Virus record (IMG/VR): IMGVR_UViG_3300037961_001616
Location: 1 to 49,593 of that record
Origin: a virus
Reading direction: 5' to 3' (one strand)
Length of the DNA stretch: 49,593 bases
Part shown: positions 5,036 to 48,290 of the stretch, piece by piece
How the letters are laid out: each line of letters starts with the position of its first letter
How positions within the stretch are numbered: the first letter of the stretch is position 1
The notes under the pieces: generated by a model
Told to the model about the DNA's origin: nothing
The model's input: only the letters and a program-made list of their open reading frames with translations
The model's database searches: none
Made by a program: the position numbers and the translations under genes

Positions 5036-5332
5036 ATGGATAGAGAGGAGTTTTTTCTTGAGGTTCAGAAGCTAGCGGTGCAGATGGATGACCTCATCGA
5101 CCGCTACGACGCTAGGGACGAAGTCGTCTGCGTGTTCCTCACAGGCAGTATCACCGAGGACGAGTTCGGGGACATGCTCATCCAAGCCGTGTACGGGATG
5201 CATGTAGACAACTCCGACGAGCTAGACAGCGTACTCGAGTTCTTTAGCCAGATGTACGAGGCAAGCAAAGAGCTTGGGGACGAACCCAACTGGGGGGACT
5301 TCCTCGGAGACTTTGGGATTAGCCTGAACTGA
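5036..5332 (+). CDS. Small acidic protein, unknown function
   Basis: This 98-residue, strongly acidic protein looks mainly helical (EEFFLEVQKLAVQMDDLIDR; ELDSVLEFFSQMYEASKE). There is no signal peptide or known motif. It begins a run of tightly packed genes (5036, 5332, 5568, 6136, 6426, 6770, 7990) leading into the terminase. Size and charge would fit a DNA mimic or host-protein inhibitor, but nothing in the sequence proves that. Confidence 0.6.
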   Translation: MDREEFFLEVQKLAVQMDDLIDRYDARDEVVCVFLTGSITEDEFGDMLIQAVYGMHVDNSDELDSVLEFFSQMYEASKELGDEPNWGDFLGDFGISLN

Positions 5333-5568
5333 TGGAGGGGCTGATTAGAAAGATTGTCCTCGGTCAGAACCCGAAGGACGCCATGGCATACTACGTCGGT
5401 ATGCGTGCAGGCAGCGGTGAGGTGAGCGCCATCGTCTACGACGAGAAGCACCTGTACAACTTCAACAAGTCTCGGTACCTAGTGTACATACAGACCGACG
5501 ACGGGGTGGTGCTATGGAAGGCTATCGAGGACCTCCCTTGCGTAGTAGAGTACGACTTAAACTTCTAA
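5332..5568 (+). CDS. Small protein, unknown function
   Basis: This 78-residue protein starts at an ATG sharing its A with the TGA of the preceding gene. It contains VLGQNPKDAMAYYVGMRAG, then strands (VSAIVYDEKHLYNF; RYLVYIQTDDGVVLWKAIED). The mixed alpha/beta layout is not assigned. It is translationally coupled to both neighbours by one-base overlaps. Confidence 0.6.
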   Translation: MEGLIRKIVLGQNPKDAMAYYVGMRAGSGEVSAIVYDEKHLYNFNKSRYLVYIQTDDGVVLWKAIEDLPCVVEYDLNF

Positions 5569-6149
5569 TGAAAACATTCGATCTATTTGTCGTTGAGCTA
5601 GAGAAGCTCACCAACGACACCATCACCACCGAGAGCGGGCTTGAGCTCTACGTGGACACCAAGTTCAACGAGTTCGAGCACAGGGTTACCGAGGGGCCAG
5701 TAGTCGCTGTCCCTTTCAAGTACGACACGGGCGTCAGCGTAGGGGATACGCTGTACTTCCATCACCTTGTCGTTATGAACGAGGGCCAGCCGCTGACGGG
5801 GGAGGACAACCACTACCTTGTACGCTACACACCCGAACACACCGTGAACAATCAAGCCATCGCATACCAAGACCAAGACGGCAACATCACCCCGCTTGGC
5901 GGGTGGGTGCTTCTAACTCCTGTAGAGGAGGAGGCTCCAACGCAGGACTCAAGCATCGAGGTCGTGAGCTTTTCGGAGCCTACAGTAACCAAAGGGGTGC
6001 TGGCTTTCGAGACCGAGGAGACCGAGGAGCTCGGGGTAGAGGTAGGGGATGTAGTGGGGTTCCCTGTCAACAGGGACTACAGCATCACGATTGAGGGGCA
6101 GGAGTACTATCGCGTAAGAAACGAAGACCTGCTCTATGTCCAGGAGTAA
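5568..6149 (+). CDS. Tandem GroES-like co-chaperonin
   Basis: This 193-residue protein appears to contain two GroES-fold modules. The second (about 110-193) has a GroES-like start (GGWVLLTPVEEE), a mobile-loop-like stretch (about 123-142), GVLAFE, GVEVGDVVGFPV and a terminal YYRVRNEDLLYV, like the end of GroES proteins. The first (about 1-100) repeats the order: FDLFVVELEK, loop, GPVVAVPFKYDTGVSVGDTLYFHH, then HYLVRYTPE. Such a protein would cap host GroEL and help fold virion proteins, as T4 gp31 does for its capsid protein. The ATG at 5568 (TAATG junction) is preferred over an in-frame ATG at 5514, which would overlap the previous gene. The family assignment is from motif reading. Confidence 0.6.
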   Translation: MKTFDLFVVELEKLTNDTITTESGLELYVDTKFNEFEHRVTEGPVVAVPFKYDTGVSVGDTLYFHHLVVMNEGQPLTGEDNHYLVRYTPEHTVNNQAIAYQDQDGNITPLGGWVLLTPVEEEAPTQDSSIEVVSFSEPTVTKGVLAFETEETEELGVEVGDVVGFPVNRDYSITIEGQEYYRVRNEDLLYVQE

Positions 6150-6426
6150 ATTCACTACGGTCTCTGCCGCCAAGAGGCTGATGAGCAGCATGGAGGTGGC
6201 CATCAACAACATGATCGAGGAGGTCAAGAAACCTGTCGATCCTGAGCTAAGTGGTGCCGGCAGGAAGGCCGAGCTCTCGAGCATCAAGCAGACGGCGGTG
6301 GACTGCAAGGAGCTGCTTGTCGAGAGGCAGCGGCTAGAGCAGATGGTAAAGGACCTGCAGGAGAGCGGGGAGATATCGCAGGAGCAGGACTACTCGGGTG
6401 GGTTCGCAGAAAGGTTCAGTAAGTAA
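6136..6426 (+). CDS. Possible terminase small subunit
   Basis: This 96-residue, mainly helical protein starts 14 bases before the end of the co-chaperonin gene. It has a basic N-terminus (MSRSKFTTVSAAKRLM), helices with KAELSSIKQTAVDCKELLVE and RQRLEQMVKDLQES, and ends DYSGGFAERFSK. Position one gene upstream of an HNH nuclease and two upstream of the large terminase, together with size and helical content, suggest a small terminase. No diagnostic motif proves it, and it could be another small helical protein. Confidence 0.45.
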   Translation: MSRSKFTTVSAAKRLMSSMEVAINNMIEEVKKPVDPELSGAGRKAELSSIKQTAVDCKELLVERQRLEQMVKDLQESGEISQEQDYSGGFAERFSK

Positions 6427-6773
6427 TGGCATACAAGAGTAAGGAGGACCAGAAGGTAGCTTCACGTAGGCACTACCAAAAGAACAGGTCTTCCATAATT
6501 GCTCGAAGTAAGGAACGTAACAAAGCACAACGCATAAGGAACAGGGCCTTTATTGCTCGAGTTAAGTCTTTCTTGAGTTGCGTAGACTGCGGTGAGTCTG
6601 ACCCTCGTGTTCTAGACTTTGATCACGTTAGGGGGGTAAAGAAGAACAACGTTTCTGACATGGCTTCGGGTGCATACTCTATATCGAGGATTAAGAAGGA
6701 GATTCGAAAGTGCGAGGTTCGGTGTGCGAACTGCCACAGAAAAGCAACCAATCAAAGAAGAGAAAACTCATGA
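6426..6773 (+). CDS. HNH endonuclease
   Basis: This 115-residue basic protein has the zinc-binding HNH arrangement: CVDCG (Cys52, Cys55), DFDHV with the catalytic-type His67, and RCANCHR (Cys100, Cys103, His104). The N-terminal 45 residues are Arg/Lys-rich and probably bind DNA. Its codons are richer in A/T than those of its neighbours, which fits a recently moved gene. HNH genes next to terminases can be homing nucleases or can help cut packaged DNA. It overlaps the next gene by four bases (ATGA). Confidence 0.85.
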   Translation: MAYKSKEDQKVASRRHYQKNRSSIIARSKERNKAQRIRNRAFIARVKSFLSCVDCGESDPRVLDFDHVRGVKKNNVSDMASGAYSISRIKKEIRKCEVRCANCHRKATNQRRENS

Positions 6774-7993
6774 CGCGGTTCTGGTGGATGATTTTCTTGC
6801 TTGTCCTGTCCAAGCTACTCAACGGGCAGTGCGACTTAGAGCTTCTTGAGGCGGACCTCATCGAGGGTGAGATTACGGTTGCGTTCAACAACACCGAGAA
6901 CTGCGGGGGCATTGCAAGCCCGACGGGCATAGCCGAGATTCAGTTTGGGTTCCAAGCTCTCGATGCGGACTGCAACGCAATGAATCAGGGGTGGGACTTC
7001 CCGTGGGGGTTGAGTATCCCTGACGACAGCAACCACCCTGGATGGATATACTCTGCTACTACTACGACTTCGTCCACCAACTGGACCAACCTAGACGTAT
7101 GGGAGGATTACAACGTAGACCCCCCGTACTACACAGGCGACACTGTCACCTTCCCACTCGACGACTTCTATCAGGCTGGTAGTACTAGTCTATTCTCCAA
7201 CCTACTCAACGCCTTCGACTTCTGGTTCGATCAGGGGCTGAGCATACAGGTTGTCATTTGGCAGATTAGCTACGGCCCCACGATGTACGCAGGTGACGGG
7301 GGGTGGGCTGAGACGGGCCCTATCGGCAACGGCATAGCTCCAGACTGTTGCGGCTTGTACGAAGACGATAACTTCCTCGACAACTGGCTTGTCGTAGGCC
7401 CGTGCGGCACCCCACTGCCTGAGGTCATCGTGGACACGGTGTACGTAGAGCTCCCACCAGATACCATATATGTTCTAGAAATCGATACGGTGGTGGAGTA
7501 CGACACAATCCCTGTCCCCATCAACTGGTACTTCTACGACACAACATACATCTACCTCACCGACACGCTGTACCTAACAGAGTACGACACCTCGTACATT
7601 ACTTTAATTGACACTGTCTATTTTACTGACTACCAGCTAGATACACTAGAAACTTACGAGTACACCTTGCTCGACGTAGACTGCGATACGGGTCTCCCCT
7701 GCACTCCGCTAGAGCAGGACTGCCCTGTCTATATCCCCAACAGCTTCACCCCAAACAACGACGGAGTAAACGACGTATGGGGGGCGGAGACCGACACCTT
7801 CTGTTGGGACTCTTGGTTGCTTACTGTGTACAGCAGAAGCGGGGAGCAGGTGTGGATGGGTACCGAACCCGACGACATCTGGTTGGGTGGTGACGAGTAC
7901 TTTGTCCCTGACGGGGTGTACGCATACAAGCTGGTCTGCTCCTCGCTAGGGGATACGATCATAATCAACGGTCACGTCACCATCTTCCGATGA
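6770..7993 (+). CDS. Secreted protein with T9SS type B sorting domain
   Basis: This 407-residue protein is built for export. It starts with a Sec signal peptide (MTRFWWMIFLLVLSKLLNGQ, then Cys-Asp), followed by a globular beta-rich region rich in Trp, Tyr and Asn (about 20-200). About residues 220-315 form a Thr/Tyr/Asp-rich stalk with repeated DTVY, DTIY, DTLY and DTSY units. The C-terminus from about 318 is a gliding-motility/CHU_C-type T9SS sorting domain: IPNSFTPNNDGVNDVW, VYSRSGEQVWMG and PDGVYAYKLVC. The ATG at 6770 is chosen over the in-frame ATG at 6710 because it begins the signal peptide and makes an ATGA overlap with the HNH gene. It is co-translated with the terminase gene, which is unusual. 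It would be displayed on or released from the host surface. Confidence 0.85.
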   Translation: MTRFWWMIFLLVLSKLLNGQCDLELLEADLIEGEITVAFNNTENCGGIASPTGIAEIQFGFQALDADCNAMNQGWDFPWGLSIPDDSNHPGWIYSATTTTSSTNWTNLDVWEDYNVDPPYYTGDTVTFPLDDFYQAGSTSLFSNLLNAFDFWFDQGLSIQVVIWQISYGPTMYAGDGGWAETGPIGNGIAPDCCGLYEDDNFLDNWLVVGPCGTPLPEVIVDTVYVELPPDTIYVLEIDTVVEYDTIPVPINWYFYDTTYIYLTDTLYLTEYDTSYITLIDTVYFTDYQLDTLETYEYTLLDVDCDTGLPCTPLEQDCPVYIPNSFTPNNDGVNDVWGAETDTFCWDSWLLTVYSRSGEQVWMGTEPDDIWLGGDEYFVPDGVYAYKLVCSSLGDTIIINGHVTIFR

Positions 7994-10125
7994 GTGCACT
8001 TATAGAGCTTGAAGAGTACACCGAGCCTGGGGTAGCGATTTGTCCGAACGGGACTCACGGCCTAGTGGAGGAGATTGGGGGGCTGGTCATCATGCTCCCC
8101 AAGCGTCCCGCTAAGAACAAGATTCTGTTCCACGACCTCCCGCGTGAGGATCAGCACTGGAGGAGGATGGAGATGCCCAAGGAGCTCCAGCGCATCAAGA
8201 GCATGGACGAGTGGATGGAGGCCCCGAAGGAGTTCCGCAACCGCTTCCGTCCGTACGTAGAGGAGGAGTTCCGTCGCCGCAGAGATGGGGTGTGGTTCTA
8301 CAACTGCGGTGTCCCAACCTACATCACAGGCAGGCACTACATGGCCTTGCAGTGGACGCGCTTTGACATCGGCTACCCTAGCTACCTTGAGTTTCAGCGC
8401 ACCATCTTCATACACATGGCCGCCTGCGAGGTTGACCCTAGGTGCATAGGTCAGCTCTACACCAAGTGCAGGCGATCGGGGTACACCAACATCTGCTCCG
8501 CCGTGCTCCTCGACGAGGCTACGCAGGTCAAGGACAAGCTGCTAGGGATACAGAGCAAGACGGGTAAAGATGCGCAAGAGAACATCTTCATGAAGAAGGT
8601 GGTGCAGATGTTCCGCCACTACCCGTTCTTCTTCAAGCCCATCCAAGACGGTACCACCAACCCGCGCATGGAGCTGGCCTTCCGTGAGCCGTCCAAGCGC
8701 ATCACCAAGAACAACAAGACCACTAGGAGCGGCGACGCGCTCAACAGCATCATCAACTGGAAGAACACCACCAACAACGCCTACGACGGAGAGAAGCTAC
8801 ATATGTTGTACCTCGACGAGGCAGGAAAGTGGGAGAAACCCATCGACATCCGCGAGGCGTGGAGAATCGAGCGTACCTGCCTAATCGTGGGTAGGAAGAT
8901 TGTCGGGACCGCAATGGTTGGGAGCACGGTGAACCCGATGGATAAGGGAGGGGCAGAATACAAGGAGCTGTGGCAGGACTCCAACCCCGACCAGCGCAAC
9001 GCCAACGGCAGGACTAGGTCTGGATTGTATAGGCTGTTCATCCCTGCCTACGATGCCTTGGAGGGGTTCTTTGACATCTACGGGAGGGCCGTGGTCGAAG
9101 ACCCCGAGGAGCCCGTGATAGGGATTGACGGGGAGTACGTAGACTTTGGGGCCAAGACGTTCCTAAAGAACGAAAGGGACAGCCTCAAGAACGACGCCTC
9201 AGAACTGAACGAGGTGGTGAGGCAGTTCCCCTTTACCGAGGACGAAGCCTTCCGCGACAGCGTGGACGGGAGCCTGTTTAACGTGGGCCAGATATACGAG
9301 CAGGTAGAGTACAACGACGACCTATTCCCCAACCCTGTCGTCAGAGGCAACTTCATATGGAAAGAGAACAAGAAGGACGAGGAGGTGGTCTTCTCCCCCG
9401 ATCCCAAGGGACGGTTCTACGTCTCGTGGCTACCCCCTGTGGAGACAAGGAACGTCAAGCGCAGGGAGAACAGCAAGCTCGTCCCCCCGTACCCGTCCTT
9501 CGGCTGCGGTGGTGTTGACTCCTACGACCTCGACGCAACACTCGACGGCAGGGGGTCTAAGGGTGCGCTGCACCTGTACAACAAGTTCACTATGGCCGAG
9601 GAGAGGCCGAGCAATATGTTCGTGGTGGAGTACGCCTCCCGTCCCCCTCTAGCCAAAATCTTCTACGAAGACGTGCTGATGTGCGCCTTCTTCTACGGCT
9701 ACCCCATCCTGATTGAGAACAACAAGTACGGGATAGCTAGGTACTTCGAGGACAGGGGGTACGACGGGTATCTGATGGGGAGACCCGATCACCTGAAGGT
9801 ACCAGGTAGCCACAGCAACGTAAAGACTAAGGGGGTCCCCTCCAACTCTCAGGACGTCATCCACGCCCATGCACAGGCCATCGAGGCTTACGTACACGAG
9901 CACGTCGGGGTGAACAGGGAGACGGGGGAGATGGGGAGGATGTACTTCAACCGCACGCTAGAGGACTGGGTGGGGTTCAAGATTGACAAGCGAACCAAGT
10001 TCGACCTTACCATCAGCGCAGGGCTTGCTCTTCTAGCGGCACAGAAGGGAAAGCCCGAAAAACCACCCACTAATTTCTCTGAGAAACGCTTCTTTAGAAG
10101 GTACAAAGGGATTAGCAGAGTTTAA
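7990..10125 (+). CDS. terL: Terminase large subunit (DNA-packaging ATPase/nuclease)
   Basis: This 711-residue packaging motor cuts concatemeric DNA and drives it through the portal. A deviant Walker A loop is seen at TKCRRSGYTN (158-167). Walker B is MLYLDEAG with Asp276 and Glu277, and a coupling motif follows at GSTVNPMDKGG. The nuclease half has a first acidic residue in CGGVDSYD (Asp510) and ends in helices with FDLTISAGLALLAAQKG. Its length is slightly larger than usual because of an N-terminal extension and an insertion near 380-480. It starts with an ATGA overlap with the T9SS cargo gene and lies directly before the portal gene. Confidence 0.9.
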   Translation: MSALIELEEYTEPGVAICPNGTHGLVEEIGGLVIMLPKRPAKNKILFHDLPREDQHWRRMEMPKELQRIKSMDEWMEAPKEFRNRFRPYVEEEFRRRRDGVWFYNCGVPTYITGRHYMALQWTRFDIGYPSYLEFQRTIFIHMAACEVDPRCIGQLYTKCRRSGYTNICSAVLLDEATQVKDKLLGIQSKTGKDAQENIFMKKVVQMFRHYPFFFKPIQDGTTNPRMELAFREPSKRITKNNKTTRSGDALNSIINWKNTTNNAYDGEKLHMLYLDEAGKWEKPIDIREAWRIERTCLIVGRKIVGTAMVGSTVNPMDKGGAEYKELWQDSNPDQRNANGRTRSGLYRLFIPAYDALEGFFDIYGRAVVEDPEEPVIGIDGEYVDFGAKTFLKNERDSLKNDASELNEVVRQFPFTEDEAFRDSVDGSLFNVGQIYEQVEYNDDLFPNPVVRGNFIWKENKKDEEVVFSPDPKGRFYVSWLPPVETRNVKRRENSKLVPPYPSFGCGGVDSYDLDATLDGRGSKGALHLYNKFTMAEERPSNMFVVEYASRPPLAKIFYEDVLMCAFFYGYPILIENNKYGIARYFEDRGYDGYLMGRPDHLKVPGSHSNVKTKGVPSNSQDVIHAHAQAIEAYVHEHVGVNRETGEMGRMYFNRTLEDWVGFKIDKRTKFDLTISAGLALLAAQKGKPEKPPTNFSEKRFFRRYKGISRV

Positions 10126-10133
10126 TATATTTG
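10126..10133 (+). promoter_or_regulatory. Bacteroidota -7 element TATATTTG upstream of portal
   Basis: TATATTTG lies just after the terminase stop and 24 bases before the portal ATG at 10158. No TTG is seen at the -33 position. It probably starts a transcript for the portal and fibre genes. Confidence 0.55.
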
Positions 10134-10157
10134 CATTTGACGACAAGTAGTCGTATT

Positions 10158-12572
10158 ATGCAAGACTCCAAAACAAAATACTCTTCTAATTTTCCTGACC
10201 CTATGGTCCCGAAGGAGAAGAAGGAGAGCAAAGAGTACGGGCTGCGGTACGCTAAAGCCATCGAGAAGCAGTGGGGTAACGCCGACGACTACAACTCTCT
10301 GTTTCGCAAGAGGCAGAAGATTTTCGAGCGCAACAGGGACTATGCCAACGGTACGCAGGACACTACTGTCTATAAGCAAATCCTTACTAGCCTGGACCCA
10401 AATAATGGGGATGGTAGTCTTGTTAATCTTGACTTTACTCCTGTACCCATTCTGGCCAAGTTTGCCCGCATCGTCACAAACAAAATCCTCTCGCGCTCCC
10501 CGTACCCGAACCTAGAGGCTGTCGACCCCTTGTCCTCTTCGGAGAAGGATCAGCAGAAGAAGATGATGCAGATGCAGGTCGCAGCCCGCGACGAGCTGAT
10601 TGCACTCAAGCAAGAGACTGGGGGGTTGACCATCGGTGACGACCCCGAGCAGCTTCCCGAAACACTCGAGGAGGCAGAGATTTTCTTCGAGACCAACATC
10701 AAGACCGACGCCGAAATCGCCGCGCAGATTGCGACGAACATGACGCTGGAGTGGAACAACTTCGACGACAACACCTACCGACGTTGCGTATCCGACCTGA
10801 CCGCAATCGGTATGGCGGTATCCAAGCGCACCAACGACCCGAACTACGGGGTCAAGGTAGAGTACGTCGACCCAGGCAGTTTCGTGCACAGCTACACCGA
10901 GGACCCCAGCATGGAGGACCTCGTGTACGCAGGCCACATCAAACGCATGACCATCAGCGAGTTGAAGCGACTGGCTGGTGACGAGCTCACCGAGGAGCAA
11001 CTGAAGAAGATTCAGAAGGGAGCCAAGAAGCACAAGCAGGGGGACTACTCCTCCCCGCACGCTACCTCGTACGACAACTTTACGGGCAAGTACACCTCAG
11101 GCTACGACGAGTACATGGTCGAGGTCCTGTGCTTTGAGTTCGTGTCCGTCGACACCGTCTTCTTCGAGGAGAAGGAGAATCGATTCGGCAACACGGGGTT
11201 CTTCTACCAAGGGTACAACTACAAGGAGAAGCCCAACAGCGTGTTCTCTCGCACCCCGCATAAGATGGAGGTGGAGAACGTGTACTACGGGATGTACGTC
11301 ATGGGGAGCGAGTTCATCTTCAACTACGGGTTGATGAGCAACATGCCTCGGAACATGCACGACCTGACTCGCACGCGGATGTCGTACTCCCCCGTGGCTA
11401 CCAACATGCGGGATATGGTCCCGAAGTCTTTGGTGGATAGCTGCATCGGGTTTGCGGACATGCTCCAGCTCACTCACTTGAAGCTGCAGCAGGCCATCGC
11501 TAAAGCCAAGCCCGACGGACTGGTGATTGACATCGAGGGGCTAGAGAACGTACAGCTCGGAAAGGGTGGGGAGTTGCAGCCGCTGGAGTTGCACGACATC
11601 TACGAGCAGACGGGTGTATTCTACTACCGTAGCAAGAACCCTGAGGGCGGGTTTCAGAACCCCCCTGTCCGCGAGATTGGCAACGCCATCCGAAACGTCA
11701 ACGAACTGATTGGGTTGTATAACCACTACCTGCGTATGATCCGTGACGCCACGGGCATCAACGAGGTCATGGATGCCTCCACCCCAAAGGGTGACGCCTT
11801 GGTTGGGGTTCGGGAGCAGGCCCTTGCGGCAGGCAACAACGCCATCTACGACGTCACCAACTCCTCCATGATTCTGTTCAAGAAGGTGTGCGAGGACGTA
11901 GTGAAGTGTCTGCAGGTCCTTCCGTCTGAGAGCGTCGTATACAGGGTGTACGAGAACGCCATCGGGAAGGAGAACATGGCCGTACTGAACAGCTTCAGCA
12001 ACCTTCCGATGTACAACTTCGGGGTCACGGTGCAGAAGGAGATGGAGGACGTAGAGAAGGCGTACTTGGAACAGAACATCCAAGCCTCTCTCGCTCAAAA
12101 GGAACTCGACATCGAGGACGCCATCGCCATCCGCAACATGAAGGACATCAACCAGGCCGAGAGGCTGTTGATTGTTCGGCGCAAGAAGAGGATTCAGCGC
12201 ATGCAGCAGATGGCCCAGCAGAACGCTCAGGTCCAATCCGAGCAGGCACAGCAGGCTGCCCTTGTGGCTTCGCAGGCCAAGCAGCAGGAGATGCAGGTGG
12301 AGGCCCAACTCGAGGCACAAACCCTGCAGCTCAAGAACGAGCTCGAGATGCAACTCGAAGCCGTCAAGCATCAGTACCGAAGGGAGATTGAGATGATTCG
12401 CGCTCAGGCCACCCTCGGGTTCCGTGAGGACGACCAGAACTTCCGCGAGAAGATTGAGGTGTTCAAGGAGGGGAAGAAAGACGAACGGGTCGATAAGCAG
12501 AAGGAGGCCCAGAAGGAACTCATCGCAAAGCGCAAGGGTGAAGAGCCCATCATCAATCAAGTCATGGAGTAA
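10158..12572 (+). CDS. Portal protein
   Basis: This 804-residue protein forms the ring through which DNA enters and leaves the head. Its place directly after terL, its size, and its podovirus-portal features support the call: an N-terminal arm with YGLRYAKAIEKQW, the helical wing with PVPILAKFARIVTNKIL, and VEYVDPGSFVHSYTEDP. After about residue 680 there is a very long Gln/Glu/Ala-rich coiled coil, likely the barrel that projects into the capsid. The ATG at 10158 is chosen; a TTG at 10131 falls inside the -7 element and cannot be the start. It joins the next gene through TAATG. Confidence 0.85.
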   Translation: MQDSKTKYSSNFPDPMVPKEKKESKEYGLRYAKAIEKQWGNADDYNSLFRKRQKIFERNRDYANGTQDTTVYKQILTSLDPNNGDGSLVNLDFTPVPILAKFARIVTNKILSRSPYPNLEAVDPLSSSEKDQQKKMMQMQVAARDELIALKQETGGLTIGDDPEQLPETLEEAEIFFETNIKTDAEIAAQIATNMTLEWNNFDDNTYRRCVSDLTAIGMAVSKRTNDPNYGVKVEYVDPGSFVHSYTEDPSMEDLVYAGHIKRMTISELKRLAGDELTEEQLKKIQKGAKKHKQGDYSSPHATSYDNFTGKYTSGYDEYMVEVLCFEFVSVDTVFFEEKENRFGNTGFFYQGYNYKEKPNSVFSRTPHKMEVENVYYGMYVMGSEFIFNYGLMSNMPRNMHDLTRTRMSYSPVATNMRDMVPKSLVDSCIGFADMLQLTHLKLQQAIAKAKPDGLVIDIEGLENVQLGKGGELQPLELHDIYEQTGVFYYRSKNPEGGFQNPPVREIGNAIRNVNELIGLYNHYLRMIRDATGINEVMDASTPKGDALVGVREQALAAGNNAIYDVTNSSMILFKKVCEDVVKCLQVLPSESVVYRVYENAIGKENMAVLNSFSNLPMYNFGVTVQKEMEDVEKAYLEQNIQASLAQKELDIEDAIAIRNMKDINQAERLLIVRRKKRIQRMQQMAQQNAQVQSEQAQQAALVASQAKQQEMQVEAQLEAQTLQLKNELEMQLEAVKHQYRREIEMIRAQATLGFREDDQNFREKIEVFKEGKKDERVDKQKEAQKELIAKRKGEEPIINQVME

Positions 12573-24640: not shown

Positions 24641-26050
24641 ATGGCAAACATTGCTGGACCTGGAACGGGTAACGCCCCTTCCTTTGCAACGACTCCAGAG
24701 AAGTACACTACGGTGGCTACTCTCTTGGAGCACAACAAGCCCGACAATCGGGACCTGCTTATCAAGACCTACGGTGACCAAGGCATCACGGGCTTTCTCC
24801 AACTGACTGGTGCGGTCAAGAGCGGTGGTACCGCTGACCACGTTCAGTACTGGGAGGAGGAGCGTCGCCACGCCACGATGACCACGGCCTCTGCTACGGG
24901 TTCTCAAATCTCTGGTGTGGTCACCTGCGACCTCGGTGATGACACTGACATTAAGGTCCGCAGCAACGACGTGGTGATGAACGCCGCTACGGGTGACGTC
25001 TTCATCGTTATCGCCACGAACATTGCTGGTGACTTTATCGCTCCGGCGACTGCCGTGACTGGTACTGCTGGTCAGATTCAACTCAAACTGATGAGTGGCC
25101 TCACCGCATCTGGTAGCAACACTCAGTTTGCTACGGGTGGTGGTGAAACCCTCATCATCCTCGGTAGCGCTTACGATCAGGGTACGGACCAGCCTGGACA
25201 CTTCTTTGAGACGTCCCCGACGCTGCGTACCAACCCGTACATGATCGTCAAGGACACCTACCAAGTGAATGGCTCTCAGGCCACGAACATTGGCTGGGTG
25301 AACGTCGGCAACGGCGACTACCGCTGGTACATCCACGGTGAGCAGGAGACCCGTGCTCGGTTTATGGACCGCCGCGAGATGATGATGCTGTTTGGCGAGA
25401 AGGCTAGCGGTACGATTGGGACCACTACGGGAGCTGTGGCTGGTTCTGAGGGCTACTTCGCTGCCGTCAACGATCGCGGTATCGTGGTGAGCAACGCCAA
25501 CGCTAACCCTCTGGACAGCTTCGGTGAGTTCGACAACATCATCCTCGAGCTCGACAAGCAGGGCGCCCCGAGTGAGTACGCTATGTACGTGAACCGTACG
25601 CAGGACCTCGCCATCGACGACATGCTGGCCGCAGGTATCGCTACGAGCGTTACCGCAGGTCTCGCAGGTCAGTTCGGCTCCTTCAACAACGACGCTGACA
25701 TGGCCGTCAAGCTGGGCTTCAAGAGCTTCACCCGTGGTGGATACACCTTCCACAAGCACGACTGGAAGCTGCTGAACGACCCGACCTTGCTCGGTGCAAG
25801 CACGAAGTTCCAAGGCGCTATGGTCCCCATGACGCAGGTCGTCGACCCCGTCAACGGTACCAAGGCCCCCGCACTGGAGCTCAACTACAAGGAGGCTAAC
25901 GGTTACAGCCGCGAGATGGAGCACTGGGTGACTGGTGGTGGCGTCCTCGGTTTCAAGACCGACGGCGAGGACGTGGCCAAGTTCCACTACCGCTCCGAGA
26001 TTGCCTTGGTGACCCGCGCTGCTAACCAGCACGTCATCATCAAGGGCTAA
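24641..26050 (+). CDS. Major capsid protein
   Basis: The 469-residue protein is assigned from its place after the scaffold and its HK97-like layout. The layout is an N-arm with FATTPEKYTTVATLLEHNKP, an E-loop/P-domain region with GDYRWYIHGEQETRARFMDR, and an A-domain-like end with EMEHWVTGGGVLGFKTDGED. It has strong codon bias toward C/G third positions, fitting high expression. The gene is closed by a strong hairpin at 26064. GroES-like 5568 may assist its folding with host GroEL; that is inference. Confidence 0.85.
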   Translation: MANIAGPGTGNAPSFATTPEKYTTVATLLEHNKPDNRDLLIKTYGDQGITGFLQLTGAVKSGGTADHVQYWEEERRHATMTTASATGSQISGVVTCDLGDDTDIKVRSNDVVMNAATGDVFIVIATNIAGDFIAPATAVTGTAGQIQLKLMSGLTASGSNTQFATGGGETLIILGSAYDQGTDQPGHFFETSPTLRTNPYMIVKDTYQVNGSQATNIGWVNVGNGDYRWYIHGEQETRARFMDRREMMMLFGEKASGTIGTTTGAVAGSEGYFAAVNDRGIVVSNANANPLDSFGEFDNIILELDKQGAPSEYAMYVNRTQDLAIDDMLAAGIATSVTAGLAGQFGSFNNDADMAVKLGFKSFTRGGYTFHKHDWKLLNDPTLLGASTKFQGAMVPMTQVVDPVNGTKAPALELNYKEANGYSREMEHWVTGGGVLGFKTDGEDVAKFHYRSEIALVTRAANQHVIIKG

Positions 26051-46394: not shown

Positions 46395-48290
46395 TTATCG
46401 GACGGGACATGCGCCGCTGTCGCAGTTGTCAATCTCGATGTCGTCCAGCTTGAGGCTGTTCAGGCTCGTGATTGGGGTGACAGAAGCAACCATCTGATTG
46501 TATGTATCTACATCTATTTCTTCCATCGGGGCCTGATCGAACCCGTGGTCGTTGTGCAGCAGGAAGCTCACCGACTTGGTGTTGAAGTAGTTGTCGTGCA
46601 GCCACCAGCGGATAGCCTCGAGCTCCTCCTTGCGGTAGTAGATGGTGACAGAGACAGAGTTGTCTGACCACTCAAGTTGCAACCTCTTGATGACCTCGAG
46701 CTGGTCGATGGCAGACATGTCGTCAGCGAACTGCGTGCCTTCAGGGAAGGAGCAGGGGAAGGAGACCACCACCGTACTGTGGTCCTCGGTCCCGTCGAAG
46801 TTGCGGACGTACTCTACGTGGTACCCATTCGACCGAGCAACTGATGCCAACTCGCTATCTGTTGCCATTCGGATTCGTCTAATGTAGTATCGGGAGAATC
46901 CAGGGTGTGCGCCAGGTGTAACACCAGCAAGAAGTGACAGCGTTCCAGAGGGTTTAACTGTAGTAAGTTTGATGGAATGAGGAAACCCATGAATCTTTGA
47001 ATACTCTTTGTCGTACCCCCTAAGGTACGTGTAAACGTCACTGAGCCATCCGCGCTGTTCCTCGCTAGCCTGCAGGTATCCCGTCACACCAATCCCCATC
47101 CTCATGTTCTGGTGCACGATGTCCTCGGTCTCCTTCAAGGAGCACGGGATCGAGAGGCTGTGCTTGTTGATGCGGTACAGGTATCGGGCTACGTTACGCA
47201 GCTCCTTCTTGCTCTCGATATTCGGGAGGTAAATCTCTGCAAGGCAGCACGTCTCGAAGTTGGCTAGGCTCTGCTCTGCGCACGGGTTGAATCCCATCAC
47301 GTCAGGATCGGGGTACTCGGTATCGCCTGTCCTCCCCATGCGGCGGGATGCGTCAAGGTTGATGAGACCGTAAGGCTCACCGTTACCATTGTACCCCTCC
47401 CAAAACTCCTCAGGCAGGTCACCGATGTCACTGCACGCCACAGAGTTGTTGCTCATGGCCCTCCAGTTCGGGATGCCACCAAGGTCCCAACGCTTGGCAC
47501 GCAGGTACTCGATGTCGTCGTGGTCACCGATGGCAATCTGTGCGGAGCGACGGACGTTGCCTGCCACCACAATCTTGCCGATGATGTTCATGATATCTAG
47601 GCAGTCCACGGGGCGGAGGCGCTCACCTGAGCGAGAGTTCAACAGCTTGTTGATTTCAATCATCCCCCACACCAAGTCCTCGCTGCCTGAAGCTGTCCCC
47701 CCAAAGCCTTTAATCTTGGCTCCCTTGGGGCGGATGAGGTGGGTGGCGAAGGTGAAGCTCTCCCCCGTCTCAAAGCTAGCCCGAAGCGTACGGTCCAGCA
47801 GTTCCACCCAACCCTCACGGGAGTCGGGGACGATGAAGTCTGCGTCGTTCTCGTCCTTGCGTGTCACCTCCACCGAAGCCTTGACCTTCGGGAGCTGGTA
47901 CACGTGCTCACGTTGGATGTTGAACCCTACCCCTGAGCCGAGCATCAGCATCTCAAAGGCCCACGTAAACGGACGGATTGGTTGGTCGACCACCACGAAG
48001 CTGCAGTTCTGCAAGCTAGGCAGGCCGAGCCTGTCCACCGTCTCGGTACCCAACTGCCACAAGAACCTCCCTGCCACGGTGCCCTTCAGGCTCATCATAA
48101 TCTCCTTCAACTCCTCCTGCTCGTAGATGGCGAAGTTGCATCCGAGCTGGTCGTTGCAGGCTTTGATGACGCGGTCAACAGTTTCCTCCCACTCTTCTGT
48201 GCGGTCGGCGAACGGGCGAGAGTAGGTACGCTTGTAGGTGGCATACCCGACCTCTCCCCAGGGGATGTCTTGGGGTGTGTAAGTCTTCAT
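46395..48290 (-). CDS. Class II (adenosylcobalamin-dependent) ribonucleoside-triphosphate reductase
   Basis: The 631-residue enzyme makes deoxyribonucleotides using a B12-derived radical. Seen are LPSLQNCSFVVVDQ with the active-site Cys, GSGVGFNIQREHVYQ, and NPCAEQSLANFETCCLAEIY holding the radical-site Cys and the Glu. VKPSGTLSLLAGVTPG and the C-terminal CDSGACPVR, whose two Cys relay electrons from thioredoxin, are also present. This matches monomeric RTPR-type class II enzymes found in many phages. It works without oxygen-dependent activation and uses host cobalamin. It begins 20 bases from the upstream leftward gene. Confidence 0.9.
   Translation of the reverse strand: MKTYTPQDIPWGEVGYATYKRTYSRPFADRTEEWEETVDRVIKACNDQLGCNFAIYEQEELKEIMMSLKGTVAGRFLWQLGTETVDRLGLPSLQNCSFVVVDQPIRPFTWAFEMLMLGSGVGFNIQREHVYQLPKVKASVEVTRKDENDADFIVPDSREGWVELLDRTLRASFETGESFTFATHLIRPKGAKIKGFGGTASGSEDLVWGMIEINKLLNSRSGERLRPVDCLDIMNIIGKIVVAGNVRRSAQIAIGDHDDIEYLRAKRWDLGGIPNWRAMSNNSVACSDIGDLPEEFWEGYNGNGEPYGLINLDASRRMGRTGDTEYPDPDVMGFNPCAEQSLANFETCCLAEIYLPNIESKKELRNVARYLYRINKHSLSIPCSLKETEDIVHQNMRMGIGVTGYLQASEEQRGWLSDVYTYLRGYDKEYSKIHGFPHSIKLTTVKPSGTLSLLAGVTPGAHPGFSRYYIRRIRMATDSELASVARSNGYHVEYVRNFDGTEDHSTVVVSFPCSFPEGTQFADDMSAIDQLEVIKRLQLEWSDNSVSVTIYYRKEELEAIRWWLHDNYFNTKSVSFLLHNDHGFDQAPMEEIDVDTYNQMVASVTPITSLNSLKLDDIEIDNCDSGACPVR

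What the first reader, a model, noticed from the sequence alone, without database searches (positions are those of the whole stretch)
5568..6149. Double GroES-like co-chaperonin
Two halves of the protein show the same order of landmarks: FDLFVVELEK / GGWVLLTPVE, GPVVAVPF / GVLAFE, GVSVGDTLYFHH / GVEVGDVVGFPV, and a terminal YxVR. Tandem Cpn10 proteins are known from plastids (Cpn20), but phage co-chaperonins such as gp31 have one module. A tandem protein would give ring symmetry different from seven single subunits.
Basis: partly seen in the sequence, partly recalled or inferred. Interest (0 to 1): 0.7.

Follow-up and report, generated by a model that had tools for sequence, protein, structure and literature searches.

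The report
Phage double GroES-like chaperonin lid
A virus of marine Bacteroidota carries a gene for a folding-chamber lid made of two GroES-like units fused head to tail, as chloroplasts do; the protein is widespread in these phages and already filed as 'co-chaperonin', but its double build and how it fits a seven-fold chamber seem not to have been discussed.

Summary
Window 5568-6149 (+) encodes a 193-aa protein. Its C half is a Cpn10/GroES domain by Pfam. Its N half is missed by Pfam, but GroES profiles, an independent phage single-domain co-chaperonin profile and structure prediction support a second, diverged GroES domain. The best solved match over the full length is a double co-chaperonin chain of the Chlamydomonas chloroplast. 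Both halves lack the GroES roof hairpin, like T4 gp31.

The protein is not unique. It belongs to PHROG 13932 ('co-chaperonin GroES'), has hundreds of IMG/VR relatives, and occurs in cultured Cellulophaga, Flavobacterium and Maribacter phages at one conserved place: small gene, tandem lid, (small gene), terminase, portal. So 'phage lids have one module' was already untrue in the databases, although I found no paper that says so.

New here: all seven named relatives examined also encode a separate single GroES, and five encode GroEL, the same set of parts as chloroplast Cpn60/Cpn10/Cpn20. The window's own clade has neither in two complete genomes, so it must use host GroEL. I propose a late lid for host GroEL that helps fold virion proteins. 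The ring (3 doubles + 1 host GroES = 7, or 4 doubles = 8) is untested.

The parts
5568..6149 (+). tandem GroES-like co-chaperonin, 193 aa, 21.8 kDa, pI 4.2
5568..5879 (+). N-terminal GroES-like domain (residues 1-104): canonical mobile loop TTESGLELY, no roof hairpin, conserved insert GDTLYFHHLVVMNEGQ
   Evidence: hhalign to GroES E 5.6e-5 and shuffles; phrog_3188 on N half of relatives; own model: first 14 VIA-align rows all co-chaperonins, Z 3.4-4.8
5604..5681 (+). N-domain mobile loop (about residues 13-38), hydrophobic motif G24-L25-E26-L27; low model confidence at 24-33
   Evidence: G24 and L27 invariant
5880..6146 (+). C-terminal Cpn10/GroES domain (residues 105-193), no roof hairpin, diverged mobile loop SSIEVV
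   Evidence: PF00166 31.2 bits; hhalign 98%; VIA-align Z up to 7.5
5925..5990 (+). C-domain mobile loop (about residues 120-141); low model confidence at 123-136
5332..5568 (+). 78-aa conserved partner gene (RKIxxG...AMxYxVG), stop overlaps the co-chaperonin start; not GroES-like
   Evidence: found in 152 of 156 loci; homologous genes at the same place in Panino, elemo, Calle, ctfjg026; no GroES match
6136..6426 (+). 96-aa gene overlapping the co-chaperonin stop; small-terminase candidate by position only
   Evidence: in 156 of 156 loci; weak homology to phi18:3 and ctfjg026 genes at the same place
7990..10125 (+). large terminase
   Evidence: phrog_6681 E 4e-209
10131..12572 (+). portal protein
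   Evidence: phrog_6547 E 7e-189
24641..26050 (+). virion structural protein, 469 aa, 50 kDa; candidate major capsid protein and candidate client
   Evidence: phrog_13704; 31% identical to phi38:1 gp093 'virion structural protein'; the capsid role is inferred

Best explanation
The gene encodes a phage co-chaperonin in which two GroES domains are fused head to tail through a turn of about 5 residues. Shown by computation: the C domain is a Cpn10 domain, the N domain is a diverged one, both lack the roof hairpin, and the fold matches a chloroplast double co-chaperonin over its full length. Inferred: the C-terminal strand of domain 1 and the N-terminal strand of domain 2 form the pairing that joins neighbouring GroES subunits in a ring, so two domains sit side by side in one ring. 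The protein caps host GroEL late in infection, and the wide, roofless dome and the long N-domain mobile loop help fold virion proteins, the 50-kDa capsid candidate first. Most speculative: three doubles plus one host GroES make a seven-domain ring; the alternative is four doubles with one domain left out.
For: Pfam PF00166 on the C half; PHROG 13932 over the full length. N half to GroES, E 5.6e-5, 0/100 shuffles; phrog_3188 on the N half of Ekhidna and elemo proteins. Full model pLDDT 75, pTM 0.75, least sure exactly at the two mobile loops and the N-domain insert. Best solved match 7ekq_R over residues 2-193: Z 9.6, rmsd 4.7, 168 aligned; Foldseek TM 0.53 against about 0.3 for single-domain matches, which suggests a similar relative placing of the two domains. 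N half alone: first 14 rows all co-chaperonins. Stretch between GxVxAV and GD: 10 residues (N, 32 of 32) and 12 (C, 31 of 32) against 17-18 in E. coli and most sampled Bacteroidota GroES; T4 gp31 has 11 by my count. Same place next to terminase and portal in seven named phages and in 156 loci. Two complete genomes of the window's clade have no GroEL and no second GroES, so the partner must be the host's. phi18:3 gp096 is annotated by similarity, while its virion proteins carry MS/MS notes.
Against: No binding, folding or oligomer data. The N half alone is poorly predicted (pLDDT 62) with Z under 5 and has no Pfam match. The C-domain mobile loop has no glycine and is among the least conserved parts; in Panino and elemo the C domain is shortened in this region and has no Pfam match, so both domains may not dock alike in all members. 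Some Bacteroidota GroES also have a short roof (12-13 residues), so the missing roof is not special to phages. The clients are not known.
Confidence: 0.72

Rival explanations
1. Only one of the two domains docks on GroEL; the other has become an adaptor, for example to recruit a phage client or the 78-aa partner protein.
For: The halves evolve differently (N 76% mean column identity, C 66%). The invariant GDTLYFHHxVVxNxGQ insert of the N half has no GroES counterpart. In Panino and elemo the C-domain mobile loop is shortened, and in Calle/phi38:1 the N-domain loop lacks the usual glycine-hydrophobic motif. The 78-aa gene is next door in 152 of 156 loci.
Against: In the window's clade both domains keep a flexible loop with a hydrophobic stretch (GLEL; IEVV) at the right place.
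Confidence: 0.17
2. The GroES fold was taken over for another job: a cap on another ring (as Chlamydomonas CPN11/20/23 on ClpP) or a morphogenesis factor at the packaging machine, not a chaperonin lid.
For: All seven named relatives also carry a separate single GroES, so a second lid looks redundant. The gene sits in the packaging cassette, not with groEL. The best solved match is a co-chaperonin chain solved on ClpP (PMC8889267).
Against: In the window's clade it is the only co-chaperonin found and it keeps mobile loops; T4 gp31 is a precedent for a morphogenetic lid.
Confidence: 0.08
3. Only the C half is GroES; the N half is an unrelated beta domain and the repeat is chance.
For: No Pfam or NCBIfam match on the N half; direct similarity of the halves is weak.
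Against: N half to GroES E 5.6e-5 with 0/100 shuffles, phrog_3188 on N halves of relatives, structural ranking, full-length match to a double co-chaperonin.
Confidence: 0.03

Closest known systems
Phage tandem co-chaperonin family PHROG 13932 (Cellulophaga phi18:3 gp096, phi38:1 gp089, Calle gp013; Flavobacterium elemo; Maribacter Panino)
   Same: Full-length homology, 180-200 aa, two halves, same place beside terminase and portal
   Different: 19-24% identity to phi18:3, phi46:3, Panino and elemo proteins. Those phages also encode single GroES and most encode GroEL; the window's clade encodes neither
Plastid Cpn20/Cpn21 double co-chaperonin (Chlamydomonas CPN20/CPN23, Arabidopsis Cpn20, Plasmodium cpn20)
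   Same: Two GroES domains head to tail in about 20 kDa; best solved structural match over the full length
   Different: Phage protein, no transit peptide, no roof hairpins (Pf-cpn20 is reported to keep roof and mobile loop in both domains, PMC3542282); no Cpn20 chain found by sequence profile
T4 gp31
   Same: Phage co-chaperonin; roof loops absent and a lengthened mobile loop in the N domain (PMC6318259)
   Different: gp31 is one domain and a heptamer; structural match to the C half Z 7.2, to the N half Z 3.4
Bacterial GroES (Cpn10, PF00166)
   Same: C half over the Pfam cut-off; N half a remote relative
   Different: Single domain, roof hairpin usually 17-18 residues

Membership tests
Cpn10/GroES (PF00166) | Pfam model over its gathering score, C half | tested here: met
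   31.2 bits against 21.1, residues 106-189
Cpn10/GroES (PF00166) | Pfam model over its gathering score, N half | tested here: not met
   no N-half match; remote homology only. The N half is therefore called GroES-like, not a Pfam Cpn10 member
Cpn10/GroES (PF00166) | GroES beta-barrel fold in each half | tested here: inconclusive
   C half Z up to 7.5; full length Z 9.6 to a double co-chaperonin; N half alone Z 4.8 at most, all first 14 rows co-chaperonins
Cpn10/GroES (PF00166) | mobile loop with a hydrophobic tripeptide | tested here: met
   N domain T-E-S-G-L-E-L with G24 and L27 invariant and low pLDDT at 24-33; the C domain has IEVV without glycine
Cpn10/GroES (PF00166) | ring oligomer that binds GroEL with ATP | not testable with these tools
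   needs protein
Plastid Cpn20 | two GroES domains joined head to tail | tested here: met
Plastid Cpn20 | roof hairpin in both domains | tested here: not met
   10 and 12 residues against 17-18
Plastid Cpn20 | plastid origin, sequence relationship to Cpn20 | tested here: inconclusive
   profile A1 over PDB sequences lists no Cpn20 chain at E up to 10; no tree was built
T4 gp31 | single-domain co-chaperonin | tested here: not met
   two domains
PHROG 13932 | full-length profile match | tested here: met
   E 5e-45, residues 1-192 on profile 1-199 of 200

The most novel reading that the evidence does not exclude
Bacteroidota phages arrived, separately from chloroplasts, at a mixed lid of double and single co-chaperonins: three doubles plus one single make the seven domains GroEL needs. 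Phages that carry their own single GroES (and often GroEL) supply it themselves; the window's clade borrows the host's GroES, making a hybrid virus-host lid.
Probability: 0.3. Interest if true: 0.75.

Novelty: new variant of a known kind. Interest (0 to 1): 0.5.

Why it matters
How a lid with an even number of domains caps a seven-fold chaperonin is an old puzzle from chloroplasts. Small cultured phages that carry single GroES, double GroES and GroEL in one genome, and a sister clade that carries only the double, make the puzzle testable in bacteria. If true it also shows how phages retune the host folding chamber for their own large proteins with a part other than gp31.

Tried and rejected
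Recent internal duplication: rejected, the halves barely match each other. Host-acquired double gene: 395 Bacteroidota genomes gave one full-length hit, an Ekhidna MAG contig; that contig also encodes terminase and portal, so it is phage. The 78-aa neighbour as a third GroES unit: no match. Second GroES or GroEL in the window or in complete clade genomes: none, also with sensitive phage-made profiles. PDB profile hit of the N half to YfiH (E 0.0018): not followed further and taken as chance, as the structure searches did not return it. PDB rows of quinone oxidoreductases and alcohol dehydrogenases: their GroES-like domain, ranked below the co-chaperonins. Papers on tandem co-chaperonins in phages: five searches, none found; the library holds only open-licence papers, so this is not proof. 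No ring could be modelled: only single-chain prediction was available.

Full report
What is there. Window 5568-6149 (+) is an open frame of 193 codons. The start is secure: the first methionine is invariant in 32 relatives and the ATG overlaps the stop of the preceding gene.

The halves. Pfam sees Cpn10 only in the C half (residues 106-189, 31.2 bits over a 21.1 cut-off). PHROGs match the whole protein to a 200-residue family called co-chaperonin GroES (E 5e-45). The N half needed other tests. A family-wide N-half profile against an alignment of E. coli GroES and GroES drawn from Bacteroidota genomes aligns in register with E 5.6e-5; none of 100 column shuffles reached that score. A profile made only of phage single-domain GroES places two domains on members of the family, the N one weakly (i-E 0.006 to 0.08). 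The public single-domain family phrog_3188 hits the N half of two relatives (E 3.9e-5 and 3e-4). The halves hardly resemble each other, so the fusion or duplication is old.

Structure. The full model (pLDDT 75, pTM 0.75) is unsure at residues 24-33, 68-73 and 123-136, that is the two mobile loops and the N-domain insert. The top solved match, covering residues 2-193, is 7ekq_R (Z 9.6, 168 residues), a chain of the Chlamydomonas ClpP structure. The literature describes a CPN11/CPN20/CPN23 co-chaperonin on that complex (PMC8889267); that chain R is a double one is inferred from its 194-residue length. The closest viral models include phi18:3 'chaperonin cpn10'. The N half alone is a poor model (pLDDT 62), yet the first 14 aligned entries are all co-chaperonins, Z 3.4-4.8.

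Anatomy. The stretch that forms the GroES roof is cut to 10 residues in the N domain (32 of 32 sequences) and 12 in the C domain (31 of 32), against 17-18 in E. coli and most sampled Bacteroidota GroES, though some Bacteroidota have 12-13. T4 gp31 has 11 by my count and is known to lack the roof (PMC6318259). The N-domain mobile loop region is about 31 residues against 23 in GroES and 24 in the C domain (my count). The N domain also carries an insert, GDTLYFHHLVVMNEGQ, in the most conserved stretch of the protein; 'HHN' recurs in distant members and is unexplained. About five residues link the last strand of domain 1 and the first of domain 2; from known GroES structures (my own knowledge) these are the strands that pair between ring neighbours, so a side-by-side arrangement is likely (inference).

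Who has it. In 156 fetched loci (some contigs fetched twice) the 96-aa gene and terminase are found with the co-chaperonin in all, and the 78-aa gene in 152. Cultured or named phages: Cellulophaga phi18:3, phi46:3, phi38:1, Calle; Flavobacterium elemo; Maribacter Panino; the uncultured ctfjg026, always just upstream of terminase and portal. In Pervagoviridae 'chaperonin cpn10' is already listed as a core gene (PMC8776804). Of 395 Bacteroidota genomes only one has the full-length protein, on a phage contig.

The co-occurrence. phi38:1, Calle, elemo, Panino and ctfjg026 each encode GroEL and a single GroES besides the double one; phi18:3 and phi46:3 encode a single GroES and no detected GroEL. 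The phi38:1 GroEL is seen as protein in infected cells (PMC13288928). The window's clade differs: G005 and G011 have end repeats, so they are taken as complete, and they hold the double protein alone. Its partner must then be host GroEL.

How it probably works. Chloroplast precedents show that lids with 6 or 8 domains can work on seven-fold chaperonins and that native ones are probably seven-domain hetero-rings (PMC5780408); the algal complex on ClpP is a heterotetramer of CPN11, CPN20 and CPN23 (PMC8889267), which would give seven domains if one member is single. By analogy three phage doubles plus one GroES would fit; four doubles with one domain idle is the alternative. The place beside terminase and portal suggests late expression and help with virion proteins; the capsid candidate is 50 kDa, near the size at which T4 needs gp31 for gp23 (about 56 kDa, PMC6318259). 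The client and the ring are inference.

Verdict. Real; a co-chaperonin by family; a double, roofless variant. Not new to databases, apparently not discussed. Its interest lies in the symmetry question and in phages that carry one, two or three parts of the system.

Noticed in passing
window 5332-5568 (+): A 78-aa protein (RKIxxG...AMxYxVG...WK...EYD) of no known family sits directly upstream of the tandem co-chaperonin in 152 of 156 loci and in Panino, elemo, Calle and ctfjg026: a conserved partner gene.
   Followed up: partly
window 6851-7993 (+): Protein with an apparent signal peptide and a C-terminal CHU_C type IX secretion signal domain (PF13585, E 1.4e-10), inserted between co-chaperonin and terminase; 18 of 156 related loci give a match. 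A phage gene product probably exported by the host type IX system.
   Followed up: no
window 6426-6773 (+): HNH endonuclease (phrog_2255) in the same variable gap; 42 of 156 related loci give a match, so the gap between the 96-aa gene and terminase takes up different cargo (280 to 4408 bases from co-chaperonin to terminase).
   Followed up: partly
window 46395-48290 (-): Phage ribonucleotide reductase (phrog_367, E 1e-127).
   Followed up: no
window 5742-5795 (+), residues 59-76: GDTLYFHHLVVMNEGQ: most conserved stretch of the protein, a double histidine followed by an insert absent from GroES; the HH(N) recurs in Panino, elemo, Calle and ctfjg026. Possible metal site or cavity-lining ring; unexplained.
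   Followed up: no
L240 2251-4374 (phi38:1): groEL and the single cpn10 of phi38:1 lie together near the replication genes, apart from the double co-chaperonin, which lies with the packaging genes.
   Followed up: no
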